From IMG/VR virus record IMGVR_UViG_3300050821_017626, positions 1-64,000 of that record: a stretch of 64,000 nucleotides of DNA, one strand, 5' to 3'. Positions 11,751 through 25,911 of this stretch are shown here, one piece after another (positions within the stretch are counted from its first letter, which is position 1; each line of letters opens with the position of its first letter). The notes below the pieces were generated by a model that made no database searches, was not told the DNA's origin, and worked only from the letters and a program-made list of their open reading frames with translations. Position numbers and translations under genes: made by a program. Origin of the DNA: a virus.

Positions 11751-12431
11751 TTACCAACTCATGATGTCATGATTTCGATGGGCCTGACCCCAAAGCTGTT
11801 TGTCAATCCATTCTTGCTCTGTTGTGACCTTGGGCTTCGGGTTGATGTCGCGCTCGATCTCTTTGCGGGACCAAGGGACATACGAATCCTCATAGACTGA
11901 GGCTTCCAGGTCGCAGTAACAGTAGGCCATGGCGTCGGCGCAGTCGGGGCTTTTGCCCGTCCGTTTCTTGATCTCATCCTTAGCTTCCAACTGAATGAGT
12001 CCGACCCGATTGAACCAACGGGGTGTGCAGAGCTGCCCAATTAATTCATCGTCGCGAGGCAAAGTAATCTCGGTTTCATTCCTCGGGTCGAGGCAGTCCC
12101 TGAGATTCCAGTACGCGTAACTGCGCATATTGCGAAATCCAAGGAGACCAGTGGAATCTTTTCGCTCGCAACGGGCATTACCATGGAAGGGAATGACTGG
12201 AAGCCCTTTGTCTCGTAGGATATCCAGCACGCCAGCGCCATAACCACCGTCGCAATCGATGATAATGGCGTCGAAGCGGTATCGGTTGTGGTGTTGGATA
12301 ACCCTGCCAGCGGATTCGAGCGAGTCGGCCTTGCTCCACTTATCCATGACGAGGAATTTCATGTCCTCGCGACCATATAGAACGCTTTTATCCACTCCCT
12401 CTCGGGCGATGTCGACTCCCGCGACCCTCAT
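11751..12431 (-). CDS. Large terminase, nuclease domain only (free-standing)
   Basis: 226 aa. Begins straight into the RNase H-fold nuclease of large terminases: GVDIAREGVDKSVL (first catalytic Asp), FDAIIIDCDGGYGAGVLDIL (second), and KSPDCADAMAYCY (third). In ordinary TerL this domain follows the ATPase in one polypeptide of about 450-600 aa. No ATPase is upstream; the complementary ATPase-only gene is at 24439-25431 on the other strand. The nuclease cuts concatemeric DNA during packaging. Overlaps the upstream small membrane-protein gene by 4 nt. Confidence 0.88.
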   Translation of the reverse strand: MRVAGVDIAREGVDKSVLYGREDMKFLVMDKWSKADSLESAGRVIQHHNRYRFDAIIIDCDGGYGAGVLDILRDKGLPVIPFHGNARCERKDSTGLLGFRNMRSYAYWNLRDCLDPRNETEITLPRDDELIGQLCTPRWFNRVGLIQLEAKDEIKKRTGKSPDCADAMAYCYCDLEASVYEDSYVPWSRKEIERDINPKPKVTTEQEWIDKQLWGQAHRNHDIMSW

Positions 12432-12568
12432 TCCTTTTTGTTGCCTTTCAATTTTGCTTTAACCTGAATAACACAGGATACGATTGATAGAATGGTAGCC
12501 ACGGCCGCGAGGATCAAAAGCAAAGCTGGGAACAGGATAATTGGCCCCCACTCGACTAAGAATTTCAT
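12428..12568 (-). CDS. Small membrane protein (46 aa)
   Basis: ATG at 12568. One long hydrophobic helix, ILFPALLLILAAVATILSIV, then a basic tail KAKLKGNKKE: an N-out/C-in single-span protein. With its upstream neighbour it forms a pair of small membrane proteins; holin or spanin-like roles are possible but unproven. Confidence 0.6.
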   Translation of the reverse strand: MKFLVEWGPIILFPALLLILAAVATILSIVSCVIQVKAKLKGNKKE

Positions 12569-12572
12569 AGGG

Positions 12573-12731
12573 CTACTGTTTTCGGAATAGATGGTAGACA
12601 AGGGCATCCACTGCCACAGCGGCAATAAAGAATGCCGCACCACCCCAAGGGTTGTTGTAGTTAAAACAAATTGCGGATGCCCATATACATAGTAAGCCGC
12701 CCACGACGAGCATTCCTTGTGCTTCACTCAT
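12573..12731 (-). CDS. Small membrane protein (52 aa, two spans)
   Basis: ATG at 12731 to TAG at 12573. Two hydrophobic segments, MLVVGGLLCIWASAI and GGAAFFIAAVAVDALVY, joined by a short NYNNPWG loop, ending HLFRKQ. Holin-like by size and topology. Overlaps the upstream gene by 8 nt. Confidence 0.6.
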   Translation of the reverse strand: MSEAQGMLVVGGLLCIWASAICFNYNNPWGGAAFFIAAVAVDALVYHLFRKQ

Positions 12732-12990
12732 CTTGGCTCTTTGCTACTTTCTTTCTCAATTTATTATTCTCGTGTTTGACCATCGCCCACCGCCCGTGCC
12801 AAACAGACGTTAGTTCTATCTGCCGATTCAGTGCCTTCTGCAGGCGTTGCAGCCGAGCCTCGTAATTGGAGACGTATTGCAGAAAATGGGCCGCGCGCCA
12901 TTCATCGGGCGCAATCGGACAAAGGGGGTGATGACCATCGAAGGCGCCGCATTGAGGATGGGGACATTGAATCCTGTCGAGTTGCGTCAA
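12724..12990 (-). CDS. Zinc-binding, coiled-coil hypothetical protein
   Basis: 88 aa. CPHPQCGAFDGHHPLC at residues 9-24 looks like a metal site; the rest is helical (YEARLQRLQKALNRQIEL) with a Lys-rich end. Overlaps neighbours by 4-8 nt. Unknown function. Confidence 0.6.
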   Translation of the reverse strand: MTQLDRIQCPHPQCGAFDGHHPLCPIAPDEWRAAHFLQYVSNYEARLQRLQKALNRQIELTSVWHGRWAMVKHENNKLRKKVAKSQDE

Positions 12991-13394
12991 CTTAACGTCA
13001 CCAGAATGGTCGAATTCAAGTTCCCACTATACGCTGTACACTCGACCCTAAAATGGGTTAACATATTCTTCAAAAGTACTCTAATTTCAGAATCATCGCA
13101 AACTACCGTTTCAACAGGGCTCCCTAAACAAACCATAGGGCTACCGAACCAATCGACCTCCACTGGCACAGCGTCAGTCTTTACTGGAGCAGTCTCCGTC
13201 ACCTCTATTGGCCCCTTGACCACAATCGTTTCAAACCCCTCCGGCTTCTCCGCATTAGGTATCCGATTACCGTTCATGTCGTGGACGTAGATCAGAGCTT
13301 CATTGAGGCAGTCGTCACACCAGATCACATCTGTAAGCACCGATCCACGCAACTTGACGGAAAAGTTCTTGCTGTTTCTTACATGATGGAGCAT
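12987..13394 (-). CDS. Hypothetical protein with a CDDC motif
   Basis: 135 aa. WCDDCLNEALIYV near residue 25 is a single Cys pair; the C-terminal half is beta-rich (SEIRVLLKNMLTHFRVECTAY). No family recognised. Adjacent to its neighbours within a 1-nt gap or 4-nt overlap. Confidence 0.6.
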   Translation of the reverse strand: MLHHVRNSKNFSVKLRGSVLTDVIWCDDCLNEALIYVHDMNGNRIPNAEKPEGFETIVVKGPIEVTETAPVKTDAVPVEVDWFGSPMVCLGSPVETVVCDDSEIRVLLKNMLTHFRVECTAYSGNLNSTILVTLS

Positions 13395-13395
13395 C

Positions 13396-13653
13396 TTACC
13401 ACCTCTCGCTTCCGGGGAGGGCCAACTGCATGGACTTGCCGGTCTCGCCCAGTTCGACGCGGGATGGCCCTGCGACGAATCTTACTTGGGTAGCAATTCC
13501 GTTAGCCAGCAACCGCCTACCCCGAGCCAGGGCTTCCTCGGCACAGTCGTAAAGGATGGGCTCGGTCTCTCCAGCACTATAGCAGTGCCAGTGGCCCTTG
13601 CGCTTGCGATAGATCACCAGGTAATGACTGAGGTCAAATAGCTTTCGAGGCAT
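13396..13653 (-). CDS. Hypothetical protein, first gene of the 10.6-13.7 kb minus operon
   Basis: 85 aa. Begins MPRKLFDLSHYLVIYRKRKG; C-terminus QVRFVAGPSRVELGETG. No recognised family. It lies about 20 nt downstream of promoter P3, making it the leader gene of the operon that contains the TerL nuclease. Confidence 0.65.
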   Translation of the reverse strand: MPRKLFDLSHYLVIYRKRKGHWHCYSAGETEPILYDCAEEALARGRRLLANGIATQVRFVAGPSRVELGETGKSMQLALPGSERW

Positions 13654-13672
13654 CGCGTTCCCTCCAATCTGT

Positions 13673-13702
13673 AGTATACGTCGCCAGGCGCCGACTTGTT
13701 AA
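13673..13702 (-). promoter_or_regulatory. TTAACA-N18-TATACT promoter (P3)
   Basis: Minus strand TTAACA (13702-13697), 18 nt, TATACT (13678-13673). Sits in the divergent gap between the TerL-nuclease operon and the integrase. Confidence 0.75.
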
Positions 13703-13815
13703 CCGGGCAAGAAAGAAGTTTTTGACCTGCAGATGGGCGCTTGGTTGGCCATAATACGAGAGGTCGAACCCAAGAATGTAATTACGGTAATAATAGTGTG
13801 ATAGGGAGGGTTGCA

Positions 13816-14025
13816 ATGGGTTACACACGAACTGAAAAGAAGGAAGAAGCCAAACGCACGGCAAACAAACTCCTGATCCGCTCGCGGGTGGAGTATGTCG
13901 TCGACTCGGAACGGGTCGATCAGGGATTGCGCCTGATCTTACGTCGCGTGATGGGAGAACCCGATGAGCCGCAACCGCTTCCGAGACCCGGAGAAGACCC
14001 TTGCCCGGTACGACGAACAAGATAG
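13816..14025 (+). CDS. Hypothetical protein overlapping the integrase start
   Basis: 69 aa from the ATG at 13816 with GGGAGG 6 nt upstream. Basic and helical (RTEKKEEAKRTANKLLIRSRVEYVV). Its last 62 nt overlap the integrase gene in another frame. Could be a DNA-binding regulator of the integrase (inference from position and charge). Confidence 0.5.
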   Translation: MGYTRTEKKEEAKRTANKLLIRSRVEYVVDSERVDQGLRLILRRVMGEPDEPQPLPRPGEDPCPVRRTR

Positions 14026-15742
14026 TCAAAAACACCGACCCCTTGCTGGGCGCATTGCCGCTCTCTACGAGCGGGTCTCCGGTGATCGCCAGGCCAAAGA
14101 AGCCAGCATCGAAACTCAAGATTCCTACCTCCGGCAATACTGTCAACACCACGACATCTTCATCTATGACACCTATAAGGACGATCCCGCCAAGAGCGAG
14201 GTCCCAATGGCCGAGCGTGCTGAAGGCCACCGACTGATCGAGGATGCCAAGAGAGACTGTTTCGATCTGGTCTTGGTCCACAGTATTTGCCGCTGGAGTC
14301 GCTACCCCGATGTCTACAAACAGGCACAGGGAACGATGCACAAACTGGGCATCGATCTCGACTGCCCCTCCGAGCATCTCTCCTGGGATTCCCCCGGTGA
14401 ATCCTTCGCCTCCGATGTCCGACTGCGAAGCAGTCAGTTGGTCCGCGATATCATCGACAAGGCTACCAGCGACGGGAAGTATACTTGGGCCGCAAAGGGA
14501 GCCGCTCTCGGAGCTGCGCCCCACTATGGCTATCTTCCCATCCCTGCCCCCGAGTGGGGGAAGAATCGAAAGCGGCTCGTTATCGATGAGCAAGAAGCGG
14601 CTATCATCCGGCGGATCTTCGATCTCCTTGTTCGTCAGCGACTGAGCTGCCGGCAGATTGCGGCTCTCTTCAACCAAGAAGGCGTCCCTTTGCCCAGCGC
14701 GTCTCCGAAATGGGATGGCTTCCGCAATCATGTTTCCGCACGAAAATGCCAGGGCCGCTGGTCGGCCTCTCGCGTCAGCCAGATTGTCCGCGACCGACTG
14801 TTTCTCGGGCAGTGTCTCTACGGAGGAACAGACCAGCGCCGCCCAGTTCTCCGTTTGGTCCCGGCAATCATCGATGCCGAGACGTTCGCGCTGGCGCAAC
14901 TGCGTTTAGCGGAGAATTCAAAACGCTCCAGTCGCAACTCCAAGCGGTGCTATCTGCTTTCCGGCAAACTGCGCTGTGCCACCTGCAACGCGGCTTATAC
15001 CGGCGTCACCGAGAACAATGGGACCAAGGCCAAGGCGCGCGGATGGACGCCGCGCCCCATCTACCGTTGCCAAGGATACCAGCGTAAGTTCGATGGCCAA
15101 GACACCCAGTGTCCCTTCTATCGCTTGCCTGCAGTTGCGCTCGAAGACGATCTGTGGGAAACCCTCGTGAACTACCTCGAACATTACGAGGATCGTCTCA
15201 CCGAACTGCGCGATGAATGGCGCAACGATAGTCAGTCCAGAGGCCGCGCTGCCTGTCAGCGAGACGAACTCTTCCGGCGCCAGCGACGACTTGAAGAGGA
15301 AGAGACGGACGCTCTCCGGGGCAAGAGCCGCCTCGGCTTCGACCTGACCCGCGAGCAAGCCCGACAGATCCTGGATACGGTTCGGGAGGAGAAGAAGCAA
15401 CTAGACATTAAAATCTCTGAACTGGATGCGCTGTTGCTTCATCTCGACCAGCGGCAAGCCCATGTGGAAACTGCCGAGGAGTACATCGAACGATACCGGG
15501 CGAACATTCGCGAGGTGCTTGACCCCAAGATGCGCCAGGAGATCGTCGCGGTGTTCCTCGAATCTGCGCTTGTCAAACCGGGTCCTTCTGGCGAGTGTCT
15601 GGTTACTTACCGGTTCTACACGCACGAGGCACTCTCCGAGCACACATCAATAGCGAAAGCAGGGTCAAGACCTCGCTTTATCAATTGGTGTGTGGAAGTG
15701 GTGCGCATATTGCTCTACGGTAGACAAAGGACCAAGGGATGA
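13964..15742 (+). CDS. Large serine recombinase (integrase)
   Basis: 592 aa. Resolvase N-terminal domain with catalytic Ser39 in LYERVSGDRQ and the Arg in SICRWSRYPD; recombinase domain around AALGAAPHYGYLPIP and RQIAALFNQEGVPLP; zinc ribbon LRCATCNAAYTG ... YRCQGY ... DTQCPFY; then a long coiled coil (RRQRRLEEEETDAL). This is the phiC31/Bxb1 class that integrates phage DNA at attB without host factors; it makes the phage temperate. Length is typical. Confidence 0.93.
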   Translation: MSRNRFRDPEKTLARYDEQDSQKHRPLAGRIAALYERVSGDRQAKEASIETQDSYLRQYCQHHDIFIYDTYKDDPAKSEVPMAERAEGHRLIEDAKRDCFDLVLVHSICRWSRYPDVYKQAQGTMHKLGIDLDCPSEHLSWDSPGESFASDVRLRSSQLVRDIIDKATSDGKYTWAAKGAALGAAPHYGYLPIPAPEWGKNRKRLVIDEQEAAIIRRIFDLLVRQRLSCRQIAALFNQEGVPLPSASPKWDGFRNHVSARKCQGRWSASRVSQIVRDRLFLGQCLYGGTDQRRPVLRLVPAIIDAETFALAQLRLAENSKRSSRNSKRCYLLSGKLRCATCNAAYTGVTENNGTKAKARGWTPRPIYRCQGYQRKFDGQDTQCPFYRLPAVALEDDLWETLVNYLEHYEDRLTELRDEWRNDSQSRGRAACQRDELFRRQRRLEEEETDALRGKSRLGFDLTREQARQILDTVREEKKQLDIKISELDALLLHLDQRQAHVETAEEYIERYRANIREVLDPKMRQEIVAVFLESALVKPGPSGECLVTYRFYTHEALSEHTSIAKAGSRPRFINWCVEVVRILLYGRQRTKG

Positions 15743-16053
15743 AACCTCAAAAAGTGACGATCCTACACCCATGCGGTCATTCAGTCGAGCATCGCTCATC
15801 TTGTCCAAGTGCGTTTGCAGCAAGACAGCAGGAGCGCCCTTGCTTGGCATGTCGGCGGAAACAAGAACGAGCCCAAGGGAGGATAGCCAGGAAGCGCATG
15901 GAGCGTTCGTCTCTGTATCTATGTTTAAGGATGGTAGCTCTTTGTCACCCGGCGAAGAAGGAAGTCCAACTGGAGGAGTTGCCGCCCTCACATCAGCGTT
16001 ATGTTCGGATGTTCGAACGAAAGTACCGGGACTACTTCGGGAGGGATGCCTAG
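15739..16053 (+). CDS. Cys-rich protein translationally coupled to the integrase
   Basis: 104 aa, ATGA overlap with the integrase stop. N-terminal LHPCGHSVEHRSSC and RPCLACRRKQ form a zinc ribbon; the rest is basic and helical, ending YVRMFERKYRDYFGRDA. Its coupling to a serine integrase suggests an accessory such as a recombination directionality factor, but that is only inference. Confidence 0.6.
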   Translation: MKPQKVTILHPCGHSVEHRSSCPSAFAARQQERPCLACRRKQERAQGRIARKRMERSSLYLCLRMVALCHPAKKEVQLEELPPSHQRYVRMFERKYRDYFGRDA

Positions 16054-16096
16054 CGACCCCGCTCTGATTGGGTCCTTCTCAACTGTGAAGCAACAT

Positions 16097-16120
16097 GGTA
16101 TACTACTTCGCGCGTATACC
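16097..16120. other. Inverted repeat GGTATAC-N10-GTATACC (operator or attP candidate)
   Basis: Seven-base arms separated by 10 nt in the noncoding gap downstream of the integrase operon, where attP of serine-integrase phages often lies. A single GGTATAC recurs at 16229. Could equally be a repressor site. Confidence 0.35.
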
Positions 16121-16152
16121 CTCGGCTCATTGCAGTCGTAGGGCCTCCTAGT

Positions 16153-16183
16153 GGCCTCCGGTCTTCACCGGGGGCCTTTTCTT
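16153..16183 (+). terminator. Strong rho-independent terminator after the integrase operon
   Basis: GGCCTCCGGT (16153-16162), CTTC loop, ACCGGGGGCC (16167-16176), then TTTTCTT. 10-bp stem with one G-T pair. Confidence 0.88.
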
Positions 16184-16207
16184 CAACTATTCGAAGCAGC
16201 CTTCTCT

Positions 16208-16236
16208 TTGCTTGGCATGCTCGTCTACGGTATACT
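16208..16236 (+). promoter_or_regulatory. Promoter of the small HTH gene
   Basis: TTGCTT, 17 nt, TATACT (16231-16236); about 70 nt upstream of the HTH gene and downstream of the integrase terminator. Confidence 0.5.
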
Positions 16237-16305
16237 AACGTCGTGCGATTGAAAAGTTGAACCTAAAAGCAACCACCGAGATAGAGGTCTGTCAGGAGGA
16301 GTGTC

Positions 16306-16503
16306 TTGCCGGCAAACTGTCCAGCTCGCCCGGAGGAGCTGATCACCGTAGCCCAAGCAGCTAGGCTTAAAGGTTGCAGCACCCGAGCGATCTACGACGC
16401 TATCCGAACCGGAAAACTCAGGCCCTGGAAAGACGAGCCCGTCCTACTGCGGAAGGTTGACGTGTTAGCTTGGACGCCGACCAAGCCGACAGGGCCTCGG
16501 TAA
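16306..16503 (+). CDS. Excisionase/MerR-type helix-turn-helix protein
   Basis: 65 aa from TTG with AGGAGG about 10 nt upstream. ITVAQAARLKGCSTRAIYDAIRTGKLRP is a winged-helix excisionase-type DNA-binding domain, ending VLLRKVDVLAWTP. Near the integrase, it may regulate integration or the lysogeny decision. A similar fold appears at 25424-25621. Confidence 0.8.
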   Translation: MPANCPARPEELITVAQAARLKGCSTRAIYDAIRTGKLRPWKDEPVLLRKVDVLAWTPTKPTGPR

Positions 16504-16504
16504 G

Positions 16505-16534
16505 GCAAGGCGCCGGAACTAACTGGCGCCTTGC
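16505..16534. terminator. Bidirectional terminator hairpin
   Basis: GCAAGGCGCC (16505-16514), 10-nt loop, GGCGCCTTGC (16525-16534): perfect stem between converging genes, overlapping the last codons of the minus gene. Confidence 0.7.
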
Positions 16535-16710
16535 TCTACCAGATCGATGGTTCCTCGTTTTCCTCGCACCCACCGCTCCAACGCCGAGAGAGATTGCCCC
16601 TGCGACCAAGCAAGGATCGGCGCAGTCTTGATGATCGTTCCCTGATCTACCACAACACCCGCGCAGAGATGTGGGAGGACCACCCGATAGAGTTGCGGCT
16701 CAGACGGCAA
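16519..16710 (-). CDS. Small conserved phage protein
   Basis: 63 aa. LYRVVLPHLCAGVVVDQGTIIKTAPILAWSQGQSL matches the plan of a common short phage protein (conserved Cys-Ala-Gly, then APIL and a Trp, then a helix LERWVRGKRG) of unknown function. Overlaps the upstream AT-hook gene by 11 nt. Confidence 0.65.
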   Translation of the reverse strand: MPSEPQLYRVVLPHLCAGVVVDQGTIIKTAPILAWSQGQSLSALERWVRGKRGTIDLVEQGAS

Positions 16711-17014
16711 CGGCTGCCTGACGCTTCTGTTTCGATTCCCTCACCCTCTTGCCAATCTCCTGCCGGTTCTGCAACCCCTCGGGAGTATCGGGATCAAACC
16801 GCCGCTGCTGCGCCAAGCTTTTCGCCTGGCGTGTTTCCTCGCTATCGCGCGAACCGGCGGGACGACCCCGCTGTCGGGTTGGCTCGGTGACAAAACTGCT
16901 GATTCGTATCGCTACCGGAATGGAACACCCTCGCATTGACAGCATCTCCAGCGCCGGCAGCACTTCAAGCGCCTCGCTGGAGGTTAGATCGATGATCGTG
17001 TGATTGTTTTCCAT
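16700..17014 (-). CDS. AT-hook-like DNA-binding hypothetical protein
   Basis: 104 aa. RQRGRPAGSRDSEET near residue 47 is an AT-hook core (RGRP); the tail is helical and basic. Two other AT-hook products occur at 26.5-27.6 kb (RRGRPKGSKNK), so this looks like a paralogous set. A sigma54-type promoter lies about 50 nt upstream of the start. Confidence 0.6.
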   Translation of the reverse strand: MENNHTIIDLTSSEALEVLPALEMLSMRGCSIPVAIRISSFVTEPTRQRGRPAGSRDSEETRQAKSLAQQRRFDPDTPEGLQNRQEIGKRVRESKQKRQAAVAV

Positions 17015-17064
17015 CTTCTTTCCCTTTGACCGTGGGGGGGCTTTACGCCCGCCTAACTACTCTT

Positions 17065-17082
17065 GTGCAATATGTGTGCCAA
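17065..17082 (-). promoter_or_regulatory. Sigma54-type promoter (TTGGCACACATATTGCAC)
   Basis: GG-N10-GC with a perfect TTGCA -12 box, noncoding, about 50 nt before the AT-hook gene start at 17014. Nearly identical to the element at 54310-54327. Confidence 0.72.
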
Positions 17083-17207
17083 AGCGCTACGCGGAAGGCT
17101 TTGTCGTCTGCCGCAAGAGATTATGGCGAGTGAAGAGATGGACTGAAGGTTAAATTATTTGAAGCAACGAGGTGCCGAAAAGTATCGGTAAGCTATTGCT
17201 CGGTCGT

Positions 17208-17441
17208 CTAAAGATCGGGGCCGAACAACTGCACAGGGCCGCGTGTAGTGGTATTGAACTCCCAAGCCGCCACCGGGTTCAGCCCGTCCATCACCCTAAC
17301 CTCGACGGCGGCGCCACTCAAGATCAGGGCTCGCCCCTTGTGATTTGCCTCGTAAGAATCCAGTTCTTTCCGGCCGCTCAACAGACACCGGTACTGAATC
17401 CATTCCCCTTCTGGCTTCTCGCGGTAGTAGACCTGGGCCAT
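17208..17441 (-). CDS. Hypothetical 77-aa protein
   Basis: Beta-rich: AQVYYREKPEGEWIQYRCLL, GRALILSGAAVEVRVMD. No family recognised. Stands alone on the minus strand; 17083-17207 upstream of the AT-hook promoter shows nothing recognisable. Confidence 0.5.
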   Translation of the reverse strand: MAQVYYREKPEGEWIQYRCLLSGRKELDSYEANHKGRALILSGAAVEVRVMDGLNPVAAWEFNTTTRGPVQLFGPDL

Positions 17442-17476
17442 CGATGCTCCTTATGGGGAGGGGTGTTCATCGGTGT

Positions 17477-17494
17477 TTGGCACGTTTTGTGCAA
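17477..17494 (+). promoter_or_regulatory. Sigma54-type promoter (TTGGCACGTTTTGTGCAA)
   Basis: TGGCACG-N4-GTGCA with GG-N10-GC on the plus strand, noncoding, about 120 nt upstream of the plus-strand gene at 17615. A GC-rich hairpin (CCTCCC/GGGGGG near 17575-17590) lies between. Confidence 0.65.
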
Positions 17495-17614
17495 TAACCC
17501 AAAAAATAGGCAAAAAAGACCTAAAGATACTTGAGTTGACGACCGATAACTTGTTGGGAAACGTGAGTAGGAGCCTCCCGCGAGGGGGGGGCATTGATAG
17601 GTTCGGAGAAACAG

Positions 17615-17950
17615 ATGGGTCTCACGGAGACGGAACGGGAAACACTGGTTGGGATCTACCGCCGCGACGTGAGCTACTGGGAGTGGCCCTACTGGGTCGG
17701 CTGCGCGGTGAAACAGGGGCGAGTGAGTATGGGCCTCGCGTATGTGCTGCTGCGCTACCGCCCGCAAGCGGGAATGCCACGACTGCGGAAAGAGATGAAC
17801 GAACTGTACTGGCAATGCCTGGTTGACCGGGCAGATGAGTACGAAATGCGGATCGAGCAGGATCAGGGAAAACTGTTCCTGGTCTCGGATCGGCCGAGCG
17901 ATGAGGTGTTGGAAGAAGAGTTGACAGAAGAACTTTGTTGCACTGAGTGA
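17615..17950 (+). CDS. Hypothetical helical protein
   Basis: 111 aa (an ATG at 17594 is also possible). MGLTETERETLVGIYRRD then YVLLRYRPQAGMPRLRKEMNELYWQ, and an acidic C-terminus. Single gene between a sigma54-type promoter and a terminator, so an isolated transcription unit; function unknown. Confidence 0.6.
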   Translation: MGLTETERETLVGIYRRDVSYWEWPYWVGCAVKQGRVSMGLAYVLLRYRPQAGMPRLRKEMNELYWQCLVDRADEYEMRIEQDQGKLFLVSDRPSDEVLEEELTEELCCTE

Positions 17951-18028
17951 CGACCAATTGGAGGGATACAATGAACTCGCAGGTCCTCTGGGGCGATTGA
18001 GGAGGAGCGAGGGCGTTGAGCAGAAAGA

Positions 18029-18058
18029 GGGCACCCAACGAGGTGCCCTTTTCCTTTT
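18029..18058 (+). terminator. Rho-independent terminator
   Basis: GGGCACC, CAACGA, GGTGCCC, then TTTTCCTTTT. Ends the plus unit at the point where it meets the metallophosphoesterase gene. Confidence 0.88.
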
Positions 18059-19152: not shown

Positions 19153-19316
19153 GGCTAATCCTCCGAAGCCTCTCCATCCAAAGACCCATAGACAGCGTGA
19201 GTGTAGATGGCTGGCGGTGGGCTGGTAGGTGGGGCTGCAAGGATTATACACCTCGGAAGCCAAGTTTGGCAGATTCTTTGGCCTCTTTCTTGCATTGATG
19301 CCCAAGGAGGGCTAAA

Positions 19317-19484
19317 ATGAAGGTGAAAACGCGCCCAGTACACCTGCGCCGAGGTTTAGGGCTAACCTGGACCTATTGCGGCCGGCGGGTGCAGCGGGTT
19401 GTCTGCGCCGAGCGGCGAGAAGATGTTACCTGCCAACGATGTCTCGCAAGACTGAGGCAGATTGAGAAGGATGCAAACCGGTGA
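19317..19484 (+). CDS. Small Cys-rich protein
   Basis: 55 aa, start with AAGGAGG 6-10 nt upstream. TWTYCGRR ... RVVCAERREDVTCQRC suggests a zinc ribbon. First gene of the plus-strand cluster 19.3-20.9 kb; overlaps the next gene by GTGA. Confidence 0.6.
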   Translation: MKVKTRPVHLRRGLGLTWTYCGRRVQRVVCAERREDVTCQRCLARLRQIEKDANR

Positions 19485-19666
19485 AACTTACATTGGTGGT
19501 CGGAACTGACAACGTTGGATCGGATGTCGAAGAAGTCATAGAAGTTTCAGAAGAAGAACTCGCCGGACTAGATCAGACGGCAAAGGAAAGATTGTTTCAA
19601 AAATACCTGGAAGAATGGGTATGGGAGCATATCGACGCCTGGTATGAGGTAGTGGAGGATGAGTGA
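19481..19666 (+). CDS. Hypothetical acidic protein
   Basis: 61 aa from GTG, overlapping the previous gene by 4 nt. Beta start (KLTLVVGTDNVGSD) and an acidic helix ending WYEVVEDE. Unknown. Confidence 0.6.
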   Translation: MKLTLVVGTDNVGSDVEEVIEVSEEELAGLDQTAKERLFQKYLEEWVWEHIDAWYEVVEDE

Positions 19667-19838
19667 ATTGAAACCAGGCGACCGGGTGAAAGCCCTTGGC
19701 CCCGGCCCCTATAAAGGGAAGAAGGGGACATTGCGAGAGGTGAAAATGAGCGTAGTTCAGTTCTGGGTTGAGTTGGACCTTGACTACGGGGGAATTCTTA
19801 CGGAGTTTCGAGAAGGCGATCTGGTGAAATGCTCATGA
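19659..19838 (+). CDS. KOW-like small protein
   Basis: 59 aa; 8-nt overlap upstream, 4 nt downstream. LKPGDRVKALGPGPYKGKKGTLREV has the pattern of a KOW/SH3-like barrel as in NusG or ribosomal proteins. Possible nucleic-acid binder (inference). Confidence 0.55.
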   Translation: MSELKPGDRVKALGPGPYKGKKGTLREVKMSVVQFWVELDLDYGGILTEFREGDLVKCS

Positions 19839-20038
19839 ATGACGATCTGGGGCGCCGCGCCTCAAGCGGCCCCGGTCTTAGAAATCGATGCCTGATTACG
19901 GGGCAGCCTTTGATTTGTAGTCGCTGCGGCGGATCTTTGGCCGGAAGCGGAGAGTGTTTGCAGGACGAGTGTCCCGGTAATGCCTGGAAGCCCTTGGGTT
20001 CGCGGCATCGCTGGTGGATAGAGGAGGATTGGCGATGA
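19835..20038 (+). CDS. Small zinc-ribbon protein
   Basis: 67 aa from the ATG that overlaps the previous stop (ATGA). CSRCGGSLAGSGECLQDEC at the centre forms a zinc knuckle; ends WWIEE. Overlaps the next gene by ATGA. Confidence 0.6.
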   Translation: MNDDLGRRASSGPGLRNRCLITGQPLICSRCGGSLAGSGECLQDECPGNAWKPLGSRHRWWIEEDWR

Positions 20039-20298
20039 TTGCTTTCGAAGATGCGCCTCCAGGTTGGGACCAGGTAACATGGTCAGCAAGACCCAATCGG
20101 TGCAGTGAGTGTGGCAATTTGTTCGAGATAGGCTGGCGCCAGGCAAAGGGGAAGCGGGAATTCAAATGTGATGACTGTATTATCGGAGCTATGCCGAAGT
20201 CGCCGATGGAAGAATATAAGCAAAAAAAGGATTTGGTGCGCCAGGTGAGGCGAGAAGCGCCGGCCTCGGGATCGCGGCGAAGGAGGAAGAATGGCTGA
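20035..20298 (+). CDS. Small zinc-ribbon protein
   Basis: 87 aa. CSECGNLFEIGWRQAKGKREFKCDDC is a complete two-pair zinc ribbon at residues 23-48; basic RRRRK tail. Overlaps both neighbours. Confidence 0.62.
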   Translation: MIAFEDAPPGWDQVTWSARPNRCSECGNLFEIGWRQAKGKREFKCDDCIIGAMPKSPMEEYKQKKDLVRQVRREAPASGSRRRRKNG

Positions 20299-20503
20299 GA
20301 ATGCATGTCATGGCGGCTGTCAGCAGGTGATCTGCATCTGTCCTGGCCTCTGCTTGGAGTGCTATCAGGTTACGAACGAGCCTCGGAAGGCGTGGAAGCC
20401 CCCGGATCGGCCGGGGCTTTTCTTTGGTCCAATTGCGATTTTCGAGGAGTGCTGGCAGAAGAAAGTAGGATCGGATGAAGAAGAGCCAAAGCCCGCTGGA
20501 TAG
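20291..20503 (+). CDS. Cys-rich small protein
   Basis: 70 aa with seven Cys in the first 25 residues (ACHGGCQQVICICPGLCLECY), then a PDRPGLFFGP segment. Metal-binding likely; function unknown. Confidence 0.55.
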   Translation: MAENACHGGCQQVICICPGLCLECYQVTNEPRKAWKPPDRPGLFFGPIAIFEECWQKKVGSDEEEPKPAG

Positions 20504-20604
20504 GACAAAATGGCTTAACCTGTAAGTTTCGACGGTCTGGTGTCACTTGGGTAAGGGGTGGGTCAAAAGGCTCGTAGAATGGCATATATAGAATTGAGGT
20601 TGGT

Positions 20605-20868
20605 ATGAATGCTGACATAATTAGATTGGTCCTCGATGCGGTGGTCGAGCGCCATGGTAGTCTGGAAGGGGCGAAGTTCGTAGCGTTCAACACTAAGTTG
20701 GACAAGAACGACAACGCGCTGGTGTTCGTCAGTTGGAGCATGGGTTCAGAACGGCAGTGCTTGCGGTATCTGGTTCTGAAGGATCAGACAGTGATGCGAG
20801 TTCCGCCGAAGAAGGAGCTGAAGAACCCTGATTGGGTCAACGCATGGAAATCAGGCGATCAAGGCTAA
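20605..20868 (+). CDS. Hypothetical protein
   Basis: 87 aa. NADIIRLVLDAVVERHGSLEGAKFVAFNTK and ALVFVSWSMGSERQCLRYLVLKD suggest a small alpha/beta fold. Last gene before the left noncoding element. A ggagc-free leader of 100 nt precedes it. Confidence 0.55.
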   Translation: MNADIIRLVLDAVVERHGSLEGAKFVAFNTKLDKNDNALVFVSWSMGSERQCLRYLVLKDQTVMRVPPKKELKNPDWVNAWKSGDQG

Positions 20869-20872
20869 CCTC

Positions 20873-21416
20873 ATGCGCACATGCATGTCACCTGAAGCGG
20901 AAAAAAGACACTAATGCCGTGGGAATCGAGATGCACCTGTTTTTTGTGGTTAAACGCAATCAGAAATGAAAGGGTTAGGCACGGTCGATGGTTGCGTATG
21001 AGAACAAAAGTGCCAAAATAGCTCAAAACAGGGGACATGAGGGAAAAACGCGGTTTTGTGGTTATCTACAACTATCGATTAGTGCCTGTGATAGGCACGT
21101 CGCAATAGTTGTATGGCAGCAGTAAAACCGTGTTTTACTGAATCCCCTGTTTCTCCGTCTTTTCACCCCTATTACGTCTGTCTTTACATCTCGTAGTAAA
21201 AGTGTTATGTCATACAATATCATCACAATATCGGTTTGGCGCCTTTAATAGTTAGTTTTTTCAGGCGTGAGGAGGATTGTATACGGGTGTCACAGGAGTG
21301 GCATTGATTGCAGATAGGGACAAAAACGAGGTTCTATTTTTTATTTTGGGGATAGGTGCGTTTTCGCTATCAGGTGACATGCATGTGTGCGCGTAACATT
21401 ATAGCGAAAAATACGC
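20873..21416 (+). repeat. Left copy of a 560-bp noncoding element, inverted relative to 51240-51800
   Basis: No gene. Shares a long collinear series of blocks with the inverse of 51240-51800, e.g. GTAAAAGTGTTATGTCA (21196-21212) and TTTTTCAGGCGTGAGG (21257-21272), and the order AGGCACGG, AAAACAGG, TTTTGTGGTTAT, AGGCA/TGCCT palindrome, CCGTGTTTT. Its ends are themselves inverted repeats (20881-20895 against 21370-21384). Ends directly at promoter P5. Function unknown: regulatory leader, origin or structured RNA. Confidence 0.75.
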
Positions 21417-21446
21417 CTAACAAAATGAGCCCCGGCGACGTATACT
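21417..21446 (+). promoter_or_regulatory. CTAACA-N18-TATACT promoter (P5)
   Basis: CTAACA (21417-21422), 18 nt, TATACT (21441-21446), immediately after the left noncoding element and 17 nt before the first gene of the packaging arm. The corresponding place in the right element has TTGCCA-N18-TATAAT. Confidence 0.72.
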
Positions 21447-21462
21447 GAGAGTAGGAGGAACT

Positions 21463-21897
21463 ATGCTGGATATACTAGAGTTGGCGGAGATCGAGGGCCG
21501 GGTGACCGCGCTTCCGGCGGGAGCATGGTTCGTGGGGCGGGACCCTGATCACACTTATTGGGTGCAGCGGGTGGTGAACTACGAACGGATTGCCAAAATC
21601 TATGCGCATGATGGTGCCGACAAAGCGGCAAGCGTTGCGGAGTTCATCGCTGCCTCGCGAACGGATGTGCCCCGGTTGGTGGAGGAGGTGTGTCGCCTCA
21701 ACCGGATTGTTGAGGAAGATGAGATTACCATTGCTGCGATCCACCAACAGAGGGATGATTGGCAAAAGTGCTGGGAGGAAGAAGCTGCAGAACGGGCGCA
21801 GTTGGCAGGAAGGGTTGAGCGGGATAACCAGCGCATCATCCAGTTGCTGGAGGAGAGCCTGGAGCTGCGCCGACAACTGATGGAGGCCAAAGCGTGA
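21463..21897 (+). CDS. Conserved phage protein (Ead/Ea22-like C-terminal motif)
   Basis: 144 aa. DKAASVAEFIAASRTDVPRLVEEVCRL is a motif common in Ead/Ea22-like phage proteins, followed by a coiled coil (WEEEAAERAQLAGRVERDN). First gene after promoter P5, with AGGAGG 8 nt upstream. Function unknown. Confidence 0.65.
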   Translation: MLDILELAEIEGRVTALPAGAWFVGRDPDHTYWVQRVVNYERIAKIYAHDGADKAASVAEFIAASRTDVPRLVEEVCRLNRIVEEDEITIAAIHQQRDDWQKCWEEEAAERAQLAGRVERDNQRIIQLLEESLELRRQLMEAKA

Positions 21898-22127
21898 TTG
21901 CGGCGATCTCGATTTCCCTTGCAGTTGGCACGGCGCTGTGGGTGCTGTGGGCGGCGGCGATATTCCTGCTCTACCGGATGGGCGAGCGAGTGGCGGCGCT
22001 GCAGAAACAGGTCAACGAGGTGCAGGGGCAGGTGAATGCGGCGCTTACATCGGCGCAGGGAGGGCACCAGTTGGCTGAAAGGGCGTTGGAACTGGTGTCG
22101 AAGAGGAAGGAAGTGGACTTTGAGTGA
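21894..22127 (+). CDS. Single-span membrane protein with coiled coil
   Basis: 77 aa from GTG. Hydrophobic AAISISLAVGTALWVLWAAAIFLLY then a helical ERVAALQKQVNEVQGQVNAAL segment. GTGA overlap with the previous gene. Could be a spanin- or holin-accessory protein (inference). Confidence 0.6.
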   Translation: MIAAISISLAVGTALWVLWAAAIFLLYRMGERVAALQKQVNEVQGQVNAALTSAQGGHQLAERALELVSKRKEVDFE

Positions 22128-22365
22128 GAGGGCGGTGTGGTGCGACGACTGTGATTGTATTCACCGATATGCGTTCTGTCATGCCTGTGGCGATTGGGTA
22201 AATATTCATCAGTGTGTGACCGTCTACAATCGATATCCTTGGTATCTGTTCTGGCGCCGCAAAACAATGACCTTGTGCGGGGAGTGCGTGGATCAGATGC
22301 GGGAGAATCTGCGGGCGCATGCGACGATGGTTTCGGAGGAATGGTGGGCGGATGAGAGTGAGTGA
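22120..22365 (+). CDS. Zinc-ribbon protein
   Basis: 81 aa starting at a TTG in the tail of the membrane-protein gene. WCDDCDCIHRYAFCHACGDW at the N-terminus and LCGEC near residue 57 indicate two metal pairs. Unknown role. Confidence 0.58.
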   Translation: MSERAVWCDDCDCIHRYAFCHACGDWVNIHQCVTVYNRYPWYLFWRRKTMTLCGECVDQMRENLRAHATMVSEEWWADESE

Positions 22366-22621
22366 AGATAAGAATGGAGTTGGTTGGATGGGGTGGGATG
22401 AACCTGAGGGCCACCGAAGTTACGTGCGCTGCGGTAAATGTGGTCAAGGCGCGCGGGGATCGGCTAATTATTGTGCAAACTGCGGGGATAGATTGCGCTT
22501 TTCCTGCAGTAGCTGCGATCAGATTTTGCCCGAGAAAAGATCCTGCCGGCATTGTGGGTCCGAGATTTTTAAGACGGGCTTGATGGGGGCTAAATGTTCG
22601 ACTTGCGGGAAGGGTCAATAG
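22352..22621 (+). CDS. Double zinc-ribbon protein
   Basis: 89 aa. Four CxxC pairs: CGKCGQGARGSANYCANCG, then CSSCDQ, CRHCGS and CSTCGK. This tandem ribbon resembles zinc-ribbon modules of host regulatory proteins. Overlaps its neighbours. Confidence 0.65.
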   Translation: MRVSEDKNGVGWMGWDEPEGHRSYVRCGKCGQGARGSANYCANCGDRLRFSCSSCDQILPEKRSCRHCGSEIFKTGLMGAKCSTCGKGQ

Positions 22622-22632
22622 TATGGTTTCCG

Positions 22633-22812
22633 ATGGAAATGTCACGTTGGGACGATAAGAAGTGGATTGAATGGTGTTCGGATACGTACTGGCGATTGGT
22701 AGATGAGGGCACAACAATACCCAGTTTTAACTGGAAGCACCATCGGTGGTTACGGACCCAAAAGCGGCGGATGGAGTATCGGGGGAAGGTGAGGAGGAAG
22801 AAAAGGCGATGA
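22633..22812 (+). CDS. Small basic Trp-rich protein
   Basis: 59 aa from the ATG at 22633; upstream in-frame ATG at 22594 overlaps the previous gene. Trp-rich (SRWDDKKWIEWCSDTYWRLV), ends in a basic cluster. Unknown. Confidence 0.5.
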   Translation: MEMSRWDDKKWIEWCSDTYWRLVDEGTTIPSFNWKHHRWLRTQKRRMEYRGKVRRKKRR

Positions 22813-22994
22813 GAGAGCGATTGCGAGAGACGTGTTGTAGTGTATGCTGGCGGTTTTTCCCTGCGCGAGAGCAGAAGACGCTGTGGAGGGAGAATTTTAT
22901 TGAATATCCGCTGACAGTGTGTCCCTCATGCTATGTTGCGAAGACACCAGGGGATCTGGAGAGGCCGATGGATAAGATAGTAGGGGGATCGTAG
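22809..22994 (+). CDS. Small zinc-ribbon protein
   Basis: 61 aa, ATGA overlap. CCSVCWRFF at residues 9-17 and CPSCYV at 38-43 make a zinc ribbon. Unknown. Confidence 0.58.
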   Translation: MRERLRETCCSVCWRFFPAREQKTLWRENFIEYPLTVCPSCYVAKTPGDLERPMDKIVGGS

Positions 22995-23038
22995 CGGGTT
23001 TGGAAGGTGGATGGGGCTTTGATAAGGGAGGGGGCGAA

Positions 23039-23449
23039 TTGGGTCAGGATAAGGCGGCAGAACAATTGGATAGAAAAGTCCGGCAGCCAGATATCAATGC
23101 TCGGTACCGGGAGATCGAAAAGTCGGTAAATGTCAGTGTGCTGGATGTGGCCAAAGCGCGGTGCAGTGGGTGTCGCGGAAAGAGCGGGGGTGATGAAGGA
23201 CTAGTCTACTACGTTCACTGTTTCAGGGAAGAGAATCGGCCGATTCGGGCGTTGTGCAAGAAGTGTGTGGTGGAAATGGCTGGTGGGGTGGAAAAGGTCT
23301 ATGTCAGAGAGGCGATTGGGCCGTTCTTGCGGAAGTTTTGGGAGAAAGATCGGCGGGAGAAGAAGCGGAACGTGACTTTATCAGGGGTGCAGATTGAAGC
23401 GATGCAGAGGGGGAGAAAGAATGCAGCCCGAGAAGAGAGCGCTCTGTGA
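23039..23449 (+). CDS. Hypothetical protein with CxxC pairs
   Basis: 136 aa from TTG with GGGAGGGGG upstream (an in-frame TTG at 23000 is possible). CSGCRGK and LCKKCVVEM are two metal-binding pairs about 30 residues apart. Basic C-terminus. Unknown. Confidence 0.55.
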   Translation: MGQDKAAEQLDRKVRQPDINARYREIEKSVNVSVLDVAKARCSGCRGKSGGDEGLVYYVHCFREENRPIRALCKKCVVEMAGGVEKVYVREAIGPFLRKFWEKDRREKKRNVTLSGVQIEAMQRGRKNAAREESAL

Positions 23450-23603
23450 GGCCCTAAAGGAGATGGCCTGCGCCGCTACTGCGCTTGCAGCAGCCATCGC
23501 GCAGCGAGATACGAAGTGGAGCGAGCGACTGCGGGCGGAGAGTTGGCAGGCGCTGAATGAGGCGATGGATAAGGTGACTTGTTTGAGTGGAGTTCCACGA
23601 TGA
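23421..23603 (+). CDS. Hypothetical helical protein
   Basis: 60 aa from the ATG at 23421. Ala-rich amphipathic helix (CEALKEMACAATALAAAIAQRD). Overlaps both neighbours, directly upstream of the TerS-like gene. Confidence 0.55.
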   Translation: MQPEKRALCEALKEMACAATALAAAIAQRDTKWSERLRAESWQALNEAMDKVTCLSGVPR

Positions 23604-24442
23604 GTGATGTAGTGTTGCATTTCAAAGATGAAACTTCGCAAGAATGTAAGAGCGTGTGCCATGCAATTGCCTTTTCAATGTTCTATGACGAGGAAAAGAT
23701 TGTCGACCGGATTGAACTGAAGGGCGAGCGGGTGTTTCCCGAGGGAGTGAAACCAGAGTACTGGCCACGTTATTGGGATCAGTGGGCAACGGCGGGGATG
23801 GGGCAGGGATTGGGTCGGAGCAAGTTTTTGCAGGAGAAGAAACGGATGATGGAACAGTATGCGCGGACGGAAGAGGAGGAATTGGCGGCGCTGGATGCCA
23901 GTATCGCGGAGCTTGAGGGACGGAAGCAGACGCCGGTCAATCGGAAAAGCTCGCTCATCATCTCGGCGCTTATGACTTCTTCCTCGATTGAGGAGGCGGC
24001 GGCGAAGGCGAAGGTGTCGGGAAAAACCGTGAGCACGCTGTTGCGGGACCCGGATTTCCAGCGGGAATATTATGCGGCACAGAAGATGACGACGGCGCAC
24101 GTCGTGATCTATCTCAAGAATATGTTTGGGGATGTGGTGCAGCGGCTTTATGAGATCCTGTGCAATGAAAGCCATGCGGTGAGTGCTCGGGTGCAGGCGG
24201 CAGGGTTGCTGATGCGGTATTCGTTTGAGATGATTCAGCGGGACGTGGACGAAAAATTCAAAGAGGAAATCCGCTACTTTATAGCTGAGATCAAGGCGCG
24301 CCAGCTAGGTCAGGGTCAGGTTCCTACAATGAAATTAATGGCGCTGGCGGAGGCGGGCGATGAAGAGGCGGAGTTCTATGGGGAAGCGATGGTAGCGGAG
24401 GTGGATAGTAGCGAAGGGATAGGTGGAGGGGTGGGCAGTTGA
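23600..24442 (+). CDS. Small terminase subunit-like protein
   Basis: 280 aa from the ATG at 23600. Central helix-turn-helix, SSSIEEAAAKAKVSGKTVSTLLRDPDFQREY, matches phBC6A51-type TerS DNA-binding domains, followed by a helical oligomerisation region (LYEILCNESHAVSARVQAAGLLMRYS). Directly upstream of, and overlapping by TTGA, the TerL ATPase gene, the normal TerS position. It would recognise the packaging site. Confidence 0.75.
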   Translation: MSDVVLHFKDETSQECKSVCHAIAFSMFYDEEKIVDRIELKGERVFPEGVKPEYWPRYWDQWATAGMGQGLGRSKFLQEKKRMMEQYARTEEEELAALDASIAELEGRKQTPVNRKSSLIISALMTSSSIEEAAAKAKVSGKTVSTLLRDPDFQREYYAAQKMTTAHVVIYLKNMFGDVVQRLYEILCNESHAVSARVQAAGLLMRYSFEMIQRDVDEKFKEEIRYFIAEIKARQLGQGQVPTMKLMALAEAGDEEAEFYGEAMVAEVDSSEGIGGGVGS

Positions 24443-25431
24443 AGCTCACGCTGAATGATCTGGATGTGAGTAAGCCGTCCGATGTTTTGGGGGTGCTGCA
24501 GGCGGAAAAGAAGCGTAAAGATTTATTGCGGGAGTTGAAGCTGGAGTTGCAGGCTGCTTCGACAACGGATTTTTCTGACTTTCAGAAGACAGGTCTCAGG
24601 ATTTTCAAGCGGCCGGATATATTTGCCAGGGAATATGTCAGGTGGCCAGAGGGAGAGAAGCTTACTGCCTATCAGGAGGAGCTTCTACTCGCTATTCCCA
24701 CCAAAGAGCGTATCGCGGTGCGGGGGCCGCGCGGGCTCGGAAAGTCCTGTCTCGCCGCCCTGGCAGTGCTCTGGTTCTGCCTGAGTCGTGAGAGTCTGGG
24801 GGTCGATTACAAGTGTATTATTACAGCCGGTTCAGCAAATCAGCTTCGTAGGTACCTTTTCCCGGAGATACGCAAGTGGGCACTTCGCCTCGATTTCGAT
24901 AAGATCGGCAGGCCAAAGTTCTGCGAACGGAGCGAGCTGCTCAAAGATGCACTACAGATGTCACACGGCGAGGCGTTTTGCGTGAGTCCCGATCAGCCGT
25001 CCTTGCTGGAAGGGCTTCATGCCTCCGAAGTGCTGGTCGTGATCGATGAGGCAAAGACGGTGTGTGACGAGATATTTCACAGCGTTGAGGGCTTCTTCTC
25101 ATCGGCGGGAAAAGACAGCGGCAAACATGCCTTCGCCATTGCGATTTCAACACCATCAATCCCAGTGGGAATGTTCTATCGGCTGCACAGGCGAGAGCCT
25201 GGATTGACCCACTGGCACGCGAGGCATGTCAAATTGGATGAGGCCCTGGCCGCAGGGACGATTACCCAGGAGTATGTTGATCGGCTGGCGGCGCAGTTTG
25301 GCAAGGATTCGTCCTTCTTCCAGCAGCAGGTGCTGGGCGAATTTGCGGCAGATGATGACAGCGGAATTATCTCCTTAGATTGGATACTAAGGGCGTGTGA
25401 TCGATACGAAGAGGAATTAGAGAATGCTTGA
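24439..25431 (+). CDS. Large terminase, ATPase domain only (free-standing)
   Basis: 330 aa from TTG. FAREYVRWPEGEKLTAYQEELL, Walker A VRGPRGLGKSCL near residue 95, Walker B EVLVVIDEAKT near 200, coupling motif AIAISTPSIPVGMF, and the end of the ATPase domain, FQQQVLGEFAADDDSGIISLDWILRA. A normal TerL would continue into the nuclease; here the gene stops. The missing half is at 11751-12431 on the minus strand. This is the DNA-translocating motor. Confidence 0.9.
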   Translation: MKLTLNDLDVSKPSDVLGVLQAEKKRKDLLRELKLELQAASTTDFSDFQKTGLRIFKRPDIFAREYVRWPEGEKLTAYQEELLLAIPTKERIAVRGPRGLGKSCLAALAVLWFCLSRESLGVDYKCIITAGSANQLRRYLFPEIRKWALRLDFDKIGRPKFCERSELLKDALQMSHGEAFCVSPDQPSLLEGLHASEVLVVIDEAKTVCDEIFHSVEGFFSSAGKDSGKHAFAIAISTPSIPVGMFYRLHRREPGLTHWHARHVKLDEALAAGTITQEYVDRLAAQFGKDSSFFQQQVLGEFAADDDSGIISLDWILRACDRYEEELENA

Positions 25432-25621
25432 TAACCAAAGTGGGCAGTCATCTCTTACCGTTTCCGAAGCCTCTGACCTGAAGATGATCGAGCCCTCCCT
25501 GATCCTGCGGGCCATCAAGACGGGGCGGCTTCCTGCAGTCGAGGAGGCATACGGTAAACGGAAACGCTATCGGATCGATTCGGATGACCTGGAGCGGTGG
25601 GTTGAGTGGCGGAAAGGCTGA
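25424..25621 (+). CDS. Excisionase/MerR-type DNA-binding protein
   Basis: 65 aa, 8-nt overlap with the TerL ATPase gene. LTVSEASDLKMIEPSLILRAIKTGRLPAVEE then KRYRIDSDDLERWVEWR is a winged-helix excisionase fold. It sits exactly where the nuclease half of TerL would be expected. Confidence 0.72.
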   Translation: MLDNQSGQSSLTVSEASDLKMIEPSLILRAIKTGRLPAVEEAYGKRKRYRIDSDDLERWVEWRKG

Positions 25622-25788
25622 TGGCTTCCTGGACTGCAGTGAGCGATAAAGCTATCTGGCGCATTCATTTACACCTAGGATTTTATCGCGTGTTCGTGGG
25701 CGCAAACCTATTTGTCAGTGGGCGACAATGGACCTTCAACCTTGGCGTCCCCGGAGTTCATCTACAGTTTCTCTGGTGTAGGAAATAA
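25621..25788 (+). CDS. Hypothetical 55-aa protein
   Basis: ATG overlaps the preceding TGA. Aromatic-rich, beta-like (AIWRIHLHLGFYRVFVGANLFVSG). Unknown. Confidence 0.5.
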   Translation: MASWTAVSDKAIWRIHLHLGFYRVFVGANLFVSGRQWTFNLGVPGVHLQFLWCRK

Positions 25789-25907: not shown

Positions 25908-25911
25908 CGCG

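What the first reader, a model, noticed from the sequence alone, without database searches (positions are those of the whole stretch)
11751..25431. Large terminase split into two free-standing genes on opposite strands
24439-25431 (+) ends exactly where a TerL ATPase domain ends (GEFAADDDSGII...WILRA), while 11751-12431 (-) begins exactly where a TerL nuclease begins (GVDIAREGVDKS) and has the third catalytic Asp context SPDCADAMAYCY. In ordinary TerL these are one chain. No intein, intron or homing endonuclease sits between; they are 12 kb apart, on opposite strands, in different operons, with a HTH gene where the nuclease should be. So motor and nuclease must assemble in trans, and could be regulated separately.
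Basis: partly seen in the sequence, partly recalled or inferred. Interest (0 to 1): 0.88.

Follow-up and report, generated by a model that had tools for sequence, protein, structure and literature searches.

The report
Phage DNA-packaging motor in two genes
In one tailed phage known only from a metagenome, the enzyme that pumps and cuts DNA during virus assembly is encoded as two complete, separate proteins from genes 12 kb apart on opposite strands, whereas it is a single chain in essentially all of the roughly 300 related loci I could check; laboratory splitting of the T4 enzyme is reported to stop pumping, so this phage offers a natural test of that rule.

Summary
24439-25431(+) is a complete TerL ATPase (Walker A/B, ISTP motif; AlphaFold pLDDT 92, best PDB match T4 gp17). 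11751-12431(-) is a complete TerL nuclease (D7, D59, D163/D166; pLDDT 87, best match Sf6 gp2 nuclease). They cover adjacent, non-overlapping parts of one profile (phrog_2, 262-474 and 482-596) and match back to back in single proteins of TurkishDelight and phiAsp2. The break lies in the inter-domain linker, and both genes overlap their neighbours, so frameshift, intein, intron or chimeric assembly explain it poorly. No second TerL is in the 96-kb record; a colinear sister phage covers the roughly 12 kb probably missing and has none there. None of 311 related IMG/VR loci has a free-standing half. The halves have diverged in the usual proportion (1.54, median 1.54), so neither seems to be decaying. 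That they reassemble in trans as a working motor is inference: T4 gp17 cut at the linker keeps both activities but loses translocation. The nuclease lies in a replication-type operon, the ATPase behind TerS. Limits: one uncultivated contig, and no close relative covers the locus. Verdict: real, a new variant of a known machine.

The parts
24439..25431 (+). Free-standing TerL ATPase (330 aa): Walker A RGPRGLGKS (95-103), Walker B/catalytic VVIDE (D203-E204), ISTP motif (S237-P239), ends in the linker helix
   Evidence: phrog_2 262-474; AlphaFold pLDDT 91.9; best PDB match T4 gp17 (2o0j, 3cpe)
11751..12431 (-). Free-standing TerL nuclease (226 aa), RNase H fold, acidic residues D7, D59, D163/D166
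   Evidence: phrog_2 482-596; AlphaFold pLDDT 86.8; best PDB match Sf6 gp2 nuclease (5c10)
23600..24442 (+). Probable small terminase (TerS), overlapping the ATPase start by 4 nt
   Evidence: (longer ORF form 23579-24442): phrog_2538 terminase small subunit E 1.1e-4, phrog_7344 E 1.5e-3
25424..25621 (+). Excisionase-like HTH protein (65 aa) overlapping the end of the ATPase gene, where the nuclease part would follow in a fused TerL
   Evidence: phrog_66 E 2.4e-4
12428..12727 (-). Small hydrophobic protein (a shorter start at 12607 is possible) whose stop overlaps the nuclease start (ATGA)
55327..57102 (+). Portal protein; in more distant relatives the fused TerL gene lies directly upstream of its homologue, here it does not
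   Evidence: phrog_213 E 1.3e-15

Best explanation
This is a large terminase broken by gene fission at the inter-domain linker. The ATPase (made with TerS from a rightward operon) and the RNase H-fold nuclease (made from a leftward replication-type operon) are both intact. Most likely they reassemble non-covalently at the portal: the ATPase ring powers translocation, and the nuclease, recruited as a separate subunit, makes the initiation and headful cuts. Shown: identity of both halves, intact catalytic residues, complete genes, absence of another TerL in the record, proportional divergence. Inferred: physical re-association, recruitment to the portal, different timing of expression. My confidence that the gene fission is real is about 0.9; that both halves serve packaging about 0.65; that they form a stable complex about 0.45. 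The figure below is for the statement as a whole, read as 'both halves serve packaging'.
For: Adjacent, non-overlapping coverage of one TerL profile and of the same single proteins in other phages. Catalytic motifs intact; the nuclease agrees with 23 of 24 columns that are at least 95% conserved in fused relatives. Folds match TerL ATPase and TerL nuclease structures. Only one match of each kind in G000. Nuclease/ATPase divergence ratio 1.54 against a median of 1.54 over 61 taxa, both halves being long branches, so they diverged together under similar constraint. Gene boundaries are sealed by overlapping neighbours. Composition of both loci matches the rest of the contig. Sister phage G001 is colinear over the structural module and its far end matches the start of G000. 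Precedents for phage enzymes that work in two pieces: Aeh1 NrdA, phage 25 gp43 (PMC2988022).
Against: Splitting T4 gp17 at the linker keeps ATPase and nuclease activity but abolishes translocation (PMC3012670, PMC9958956). Only one contig shows the split. About 12 kb of this genome is probably missing, so a second TerL is unlikely but not strictly excluded. No complex could be modelled here. The ATPase departs from near-invariant positions mainly in its C-terminal part (13 of 26 columns against 10 of 58 elsewhere; Fisher p 0.003, region chosen after seeing the data), which could be adaptation to the split or loosened contact.
Confidence: 0.6

Rival explanations
1. The ATPase translocates DNA alone, and the nuclease works in packaging as a separate soluble enzyme that cuts concatemers at initiation and at headful, without being part of the translocating ring.
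For: T4 ATPase and nuclease domains keep their activities apart, and nuclease-dead gp17 still packages linear DNA (PMC3012670). The nuclease is coded with replication genes, far from portal and TerS. The C-terminal part of the ATPase, which leads to the linker, is where it departs most from fused relatives.
Against: In T4 the C-domain carries the DNA translocation groove, and the separated ATPase domain does not pump (PMC3012670, PMC9958956).
Confidence: 0.2
2. The nuclease has been co-opted for DNA metabolism, for example as a Holliday-junction resolvase in the replication operon, and no longer serves packaging.
For: It sits in the leftward operon with sliding clamp, sigma factors, SNF2-type helicase, an AAA_24 ATPase and RNase HI. 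Weaker structural matches include poxvirus resolvases.
Against: Sequence and fold are closest to TerL nucleases, not resolvases. Its divergence is in the normal proportion to that of the ATPase and 23 of 24 signature columns are kept. The phage would then lack a TerL nuclease.
Confidence: 0.12
3. A complete TerL lies in the unsequenced part of the genome, and the two halves are leftovers or a duplicate.
For: G000 is a linear record; comparison with G001 suggests that about 12 kb is missing.
Against: The corresponding stretch of the sister phage codes for primase, Pol III alpha and other genes and has no TerL match. Leftovers would not be expected to keep both active sites and normal divergence.
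Confidence: 0.05
4. Artefact: assembly chimera, frameshift, or a hidden intein or trans-spliced intron.
For: A single metagenomic contig. Inteins occur in TerLs of relatives, one of them close to this boundary (L043; also L022 and Mwe-JY05).
Against: Both genes are complete on their own and overlap their neighbours, so a chimera would have to break twice exactly at a domain boundary. No nuclease remnant follows the ATPase and no ATPase precedes the nuclease. Neither chain carries intein halves. No intron family matches. Composition is uniform.
Confidence: 0.03

Closest known systems
TerL of Streptomyces phage TurkishDelight (gp2) and Actinoplanes phage phiAsp2 (Pas60)
   Same: ATPase 46% and nuclease about 38% identical; same motifs; a putative small-terminase or HTH gene just upstream
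   Different: One chain of 547 and 492 aa; here two genes on opposite strands
T4 gp17
   Same: ATPase fold (2o0j, 3cpe) and RNase H-fold nuclease with an acidic triad, joined by a linker at the same place
   Different: Single chain; experimental splitting at the linker abolishes translocation (PMC3012670)
Sf6 gp2 and E217 TerL nuclease domains
   Same: Closest solved structures to the free-standing nuclease (5c10, 8dkr)
   Different: There they are C-terminal domains of a longer TerL
ICP1 terL (two exons) and inteins in TerL
   Same: TerL coding sequence interrupted
   Different: Joined again by RNA or protein splicing (PMC10448857; inteins); here no splicing element was found
Aeh1 NrdA and phage 25 gp43, genes in pieces
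   Same: One enzyme permanently made as two polypeptides
   Different: There a homing endonuclease gene or other insertion separates the pieces of the gene (PMC2988022); here the pieces are 12 kb apart on opposite strands
Bajarodcaudo virus 4 TerL in two ORFs (PQ006095)
   Same: Two annotated TerL ORFs
   Different: Overlapping and in tandem; the first ORF is only 155 aa, so the break is not at the domain boundary and a frameshift is likelier

Membership tests
Large terminase (TerL) | Walker A, Walker B with catalytic acid, and ATPase coupling motif | tested here: met
   R95-S103, D203-E204, S237-P239 in the alignments
Large terminase (TerL) | RNase H-fold nuclease with acidic catalytic residues | tested here: met
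   D7, D59, D163/D166; fold match to 5c10
Large terminase (TerL) | ATPase fold of packaging motors | tested here: met
   the best 32 PDB matches are TerL structures or TerL threading models
Large terminase (TerL) | Both domains in one polypeptide (nuclease domain called universal in Caudovirales, PMC7824862) | tested here: not met
Large terminase (TerL) | Gene next to TerS | tested here: met
   true of the ATPase half only
Large terminase (TerL) | Gene next to portal, as in distant relatives L085 and L177-L182 | tested here: not met
   portal at 55327, 30 kb from the ATPase
Large terminase (TerL) | ATP-driven DNA packaging and headful cleavage | not testable with these tools
   needs biochemistry
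Fractured gene with split intein | Intein halves at the C-end of the first piece and the N-end of the second | tested here: not met
   ATPase ends in the linker, nuclease starts MRVAGVDIAR
Trans-spliced group I/II intron | Intron RNA at the break | tested here: not met
   Rfam; coding neighbours overlap both ends
Genes in pieces by homing endonuclease | Two active polypeptides from one ancestral gene | tested here: inconclusive
   two complete polypeptides found; activity not testable
Genes in pieces by homing endonuclease | Homing endonuclease gene between the pieces | tested here: not met
   homing-type genes found at 54329, 77735 and 89103, none recognised between 12431 and 24439. Small ORFs in between were not all scanned

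The most novel reading that the evidence does not exclude
A natural two-subunit terminase: an ATPase pump and a separately expressed nuclease that reassemble at the portal, which would show that the covalent hinge thought essential for packaging is dispensable and that motor and cutter can be regulated independently.
Probability: 0.45. Interest if true: 0.87.

Novelty: new variant of a known kind. Interest (0 to 1): 0.73.

Why it matters
The nuclease domain joined to the ATPase is treated as universal in tailed phages (PMC7824862), and in T4 the linker is reported essential for translocation (PMC3012670, PMC9958956). A phage that has evolved without it would be a natural counter-example: it lets one ask directly what the hinge is for, whether the nuclease domain is part of the moving motor or only the cutter, and how headful cutting is timed. 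It would also give a two-part motor that can be reconstituted from separately made subunits. A practical point: TerL is the usual marker gene for tailed phages, and a split TerL is easily missed or called incomplete (Pfam gave no match at all for the nuclease half).

Tried and rejected
1) Inversion of 12432-25431: it would bring the halves back into one orientation, but no repeat of 11 nt or more was found between the flanks, and TerS-ATPase already points the same way as the portal, so a move of the nuclease part is at least as likely. 2) A rearrangement by the serine integrase: its position is suggestive only. 3) Split intein or trans-splicing: no sequence for it. 4) Decay of one half: divergence ratio normal. 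5) phrog_5902, a 359-position family of unknown function that matches the ATPase, looked like a family of free-standing ATPases, but it matches fused TerLs as well. 6) Single-protein scan for close relatives of the ATPase in IMG/VR: none; scans of bacterial genomes with portal and capsid: none. 7) Other split TerLs: none among 311 loci; bajarodcaudo virus 4 is a tandem overlap inside one domain. 8) Papers on split or free-standing TerL halves: none found in the held library. 9) A joint two-chain model could not be run with the tool.
Full report
What is there. The window is bases 1-64000 of a 96,261-bp virus record. ORF 24439-25431(+) encodes 330 aa and ORF 11751-12431(-) encodes 226 aa. Against PHROGs the first matches phrog_2 (terminase large subunit) over profile positions 262-474 (E 1.3e-23) and the second over 482-596 (E 2.2e-9): adjacent and not overlapping. 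Pfam gives the ATPase only a sub-threshold Terminase_6N match and the nuclease nothing, so routine annotation would easily miss the second half.

Same protein, two halves. With tblastn in 50,697 phage records, both queries hit the same single genes back to back: TurkishDelight gp2 (ATPase 46% identity at 549-1379, nuclease 38% at 1416-1937) and phiAsp2 Pas60. In 129 fused relatives with good coverage, the stretch between the equivalents of ATPase residue 325 and nuclease residue 1 is most often 11 residues. Here the ATPase keeps five residues after 325 and the nuclease starts at its methionine. The break therefore lies in the linker and only a few linker residues are missing.

Both halves look functional. 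The ATPase keeps Walker A, Walker B with catalytic glutamate and the ISTP motif; the nuclease keeps D7, D59 and D163/D166. AlphaFold models built on alignments of homologues reach pLDDT 91.9 (ATPase) and 86.8 (nuclease). Foldseek puts the ATPase nearest T4 gp17 (2o0j, 3cpe) and other TerLs, and the nuclease nearest Sf6 gp2 and E217 TerL nuclease domains; profile searches of PDB sequences agree. In trees of 61 taxa the window's nuclease-to-ATPase divergence ratio is 1.54 against a median of 1.54 (range 1.14-2.13), so neither half runs ahead of the other, though the window is the longest terminal branch in both trees. The nuclease agrees with 23 of 24 columns that are at least 95% conserved in fused relatives; the ATPase with 61 of 84. 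The ATPase departures are concentrated in residues 258-325 (13 of 26 against 10 of 58 elsewhere, Fisher p 0.003), whereas five fused outgroups depart about evenly along the domain. The region was chosen after seeing the data, so this is a lead only; it is the part of the ATPase that leads into the linker.

Not an artefact, as far as sequence can tell. The ATPase start overlaps the stop of the TerS-like gene and its stop overlaps the start of an HTH gene; the nuclease start overlaps the stop of the preceding gene. A chimeric contig would have had to break twice at a domain boundary and produce these overlaps. No nuclease sequence follows the ATPase in any frame and no ATPase sequence precedes the nuclease. 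Tetranucleotide usage of both loci fits the rest of the contig (correlation 0.66 and 0.74, against 0.26-0.36 for other phages). Rfam finds no intron.

No other TerL. Profiles of each half and phrog_2 find exactly one ATPase and one nuclease in the record. A sister phage, G001 (IMGVR_UViG_3300005534_000015, 63 kb), is colinear with the record from portal (54% identity) through a protease-capsid fusion (57%) to the tail genes, and its other end matches the first gene of the window. From this I estimate that about 12 kb of the window's genome is missing; in G001 that stretch codes for primase, Pol III alpha (names read by eye) and others, and the whole of G001 has no TerL match. G001 in turn lacks the part that holds both TerL halves here, so it cannot say whether the split is shared. 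More distant relatives (L085, L177-L182) have a fused TerL directly upstream of the portal, which I take as the ancestral arrangement. Immediately upstream of the portal the window has a LAGLIDADG-type homing endonuclease gene on the other strand (54329-55231) and G001 has an HNH-type one.

How common. Four alignment-based scans of IMG/VR with the two halves, together with the portal-found relatives, gave 311 loci with a relative of either half (some contigs counted more than once). 275 are fused, 30 are long ORFs in which only one half is recognised, 6 are cut by an edge; none is a free-standing half. In one, L017, the nuclease runs into an overlapping second ORF on the same strand, probably a frameshift. 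The tools may leave out records very near the window's own. Relatives do carry inteins: in L043 just inside the nuclease start (GVDVAR-intein-SGLDKT), in L022 within the nuclease, and in Microcystis phage Mwe-JY05 at Walker A, so this gene is a target of homing elements.

What is known. The C-terminal nuclease is described as universal in tailed phages (PMC7824862). T4 gp17 cut at the linker keeps ATPase and nuclease activity but loses translocation (PMC3012670, PMC9958956). ICP1 terL is interrupted but spliced (PMC10448857). Phage enzymes made permanently in two pieces exist (Aeh1 NrdA, phage 25 gp43; PMC2988022). I found no report of TerL split into two free genes in the held library; subscription journals are mostly missing from it.

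How it probably works. The ATPase lies behind TerS in a rightward operon; the nuclease lies in a leftward operon with sliding clamp, sigma factors, helicase, AAA_24 ATPase, RNase HI and a methylase. My preferred reading is non-covalent reassembly at the portal, with a soluble cutter as the main rival and a co-opted resolvase as the next. How the split arose is open: a homing event followed by loss of the element, or transfer of the nuclease part into the replication operon, would both do; a simple inversion is not supported by repeats.

Limits. One uncultivated contig, no close relative covering the locus, no two-chain model, no expression data.

Noticed in passing
window 20869-21462 and 51169-51821: Two non-coding stretches of about 600 bp, 30 kb apart, are diverged inverted copies of each other (blastn 68% over 295 bp, E 3e-19; shared 17-mer GTAAAAGTGTTATGTCA) and hold several short inverted repeats. 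One lies upstream of the TerS-ATPase operon, the other between divergent genes. Candidate paired origins or control regions; no match in phage records.
   Followed up: partly
L001 10041-13550 (record 70041-73550); also G001 23819-27292: Head maturation protease and major capsid protein fused in one 1169-aa protein (phrog_207 and phrog_138), conserved in the sister phage at 57% identity.
   Followed up: partly
window 54329-55231; record 77735-79018 and 89103-90158: At least three free-standing homing-type endonuclease genes (LAGLIDADG, HNH, and endonuclease VII-like with two repeats) among the structural genes; G001 also has an HNH-type gene just upstream of the portal.
   Followed up: partly
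L001 4950-8792 (record 64950-68792): A 1280-aa protein with RHS/YD-like repeats (read by eye; only profile match phrog_10385, unknown function) inside the head module, starting with a signal-like hydrophobic stretch.
   Followed up: no
window 13964-15742 and 25424-25621: Large serine integrase (phrog_95, E 1.2e-66) and an excisionase-like HTH gene, so the phage is probably temperate.
   Followed up: no
L043 2443-5079, L022 9554-12811, L010 3018-5678: Inteins inside fused TerLs of relatives: just inside the nuclease start, within the nuclease, and at Walker A.
   Followed up: partly
L017 1469-3725: TerL relative with its nuclease part broken into an overlapping second ORF on the same strand, probably a frameshift.
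   Followed up: no
record 83752-87072 (L002): Several genes that look like glycosyltransferases or methyltransferases lie among the tail genes and are conserved at 53-60% in G001; function read by eye only.
   Followed up: no
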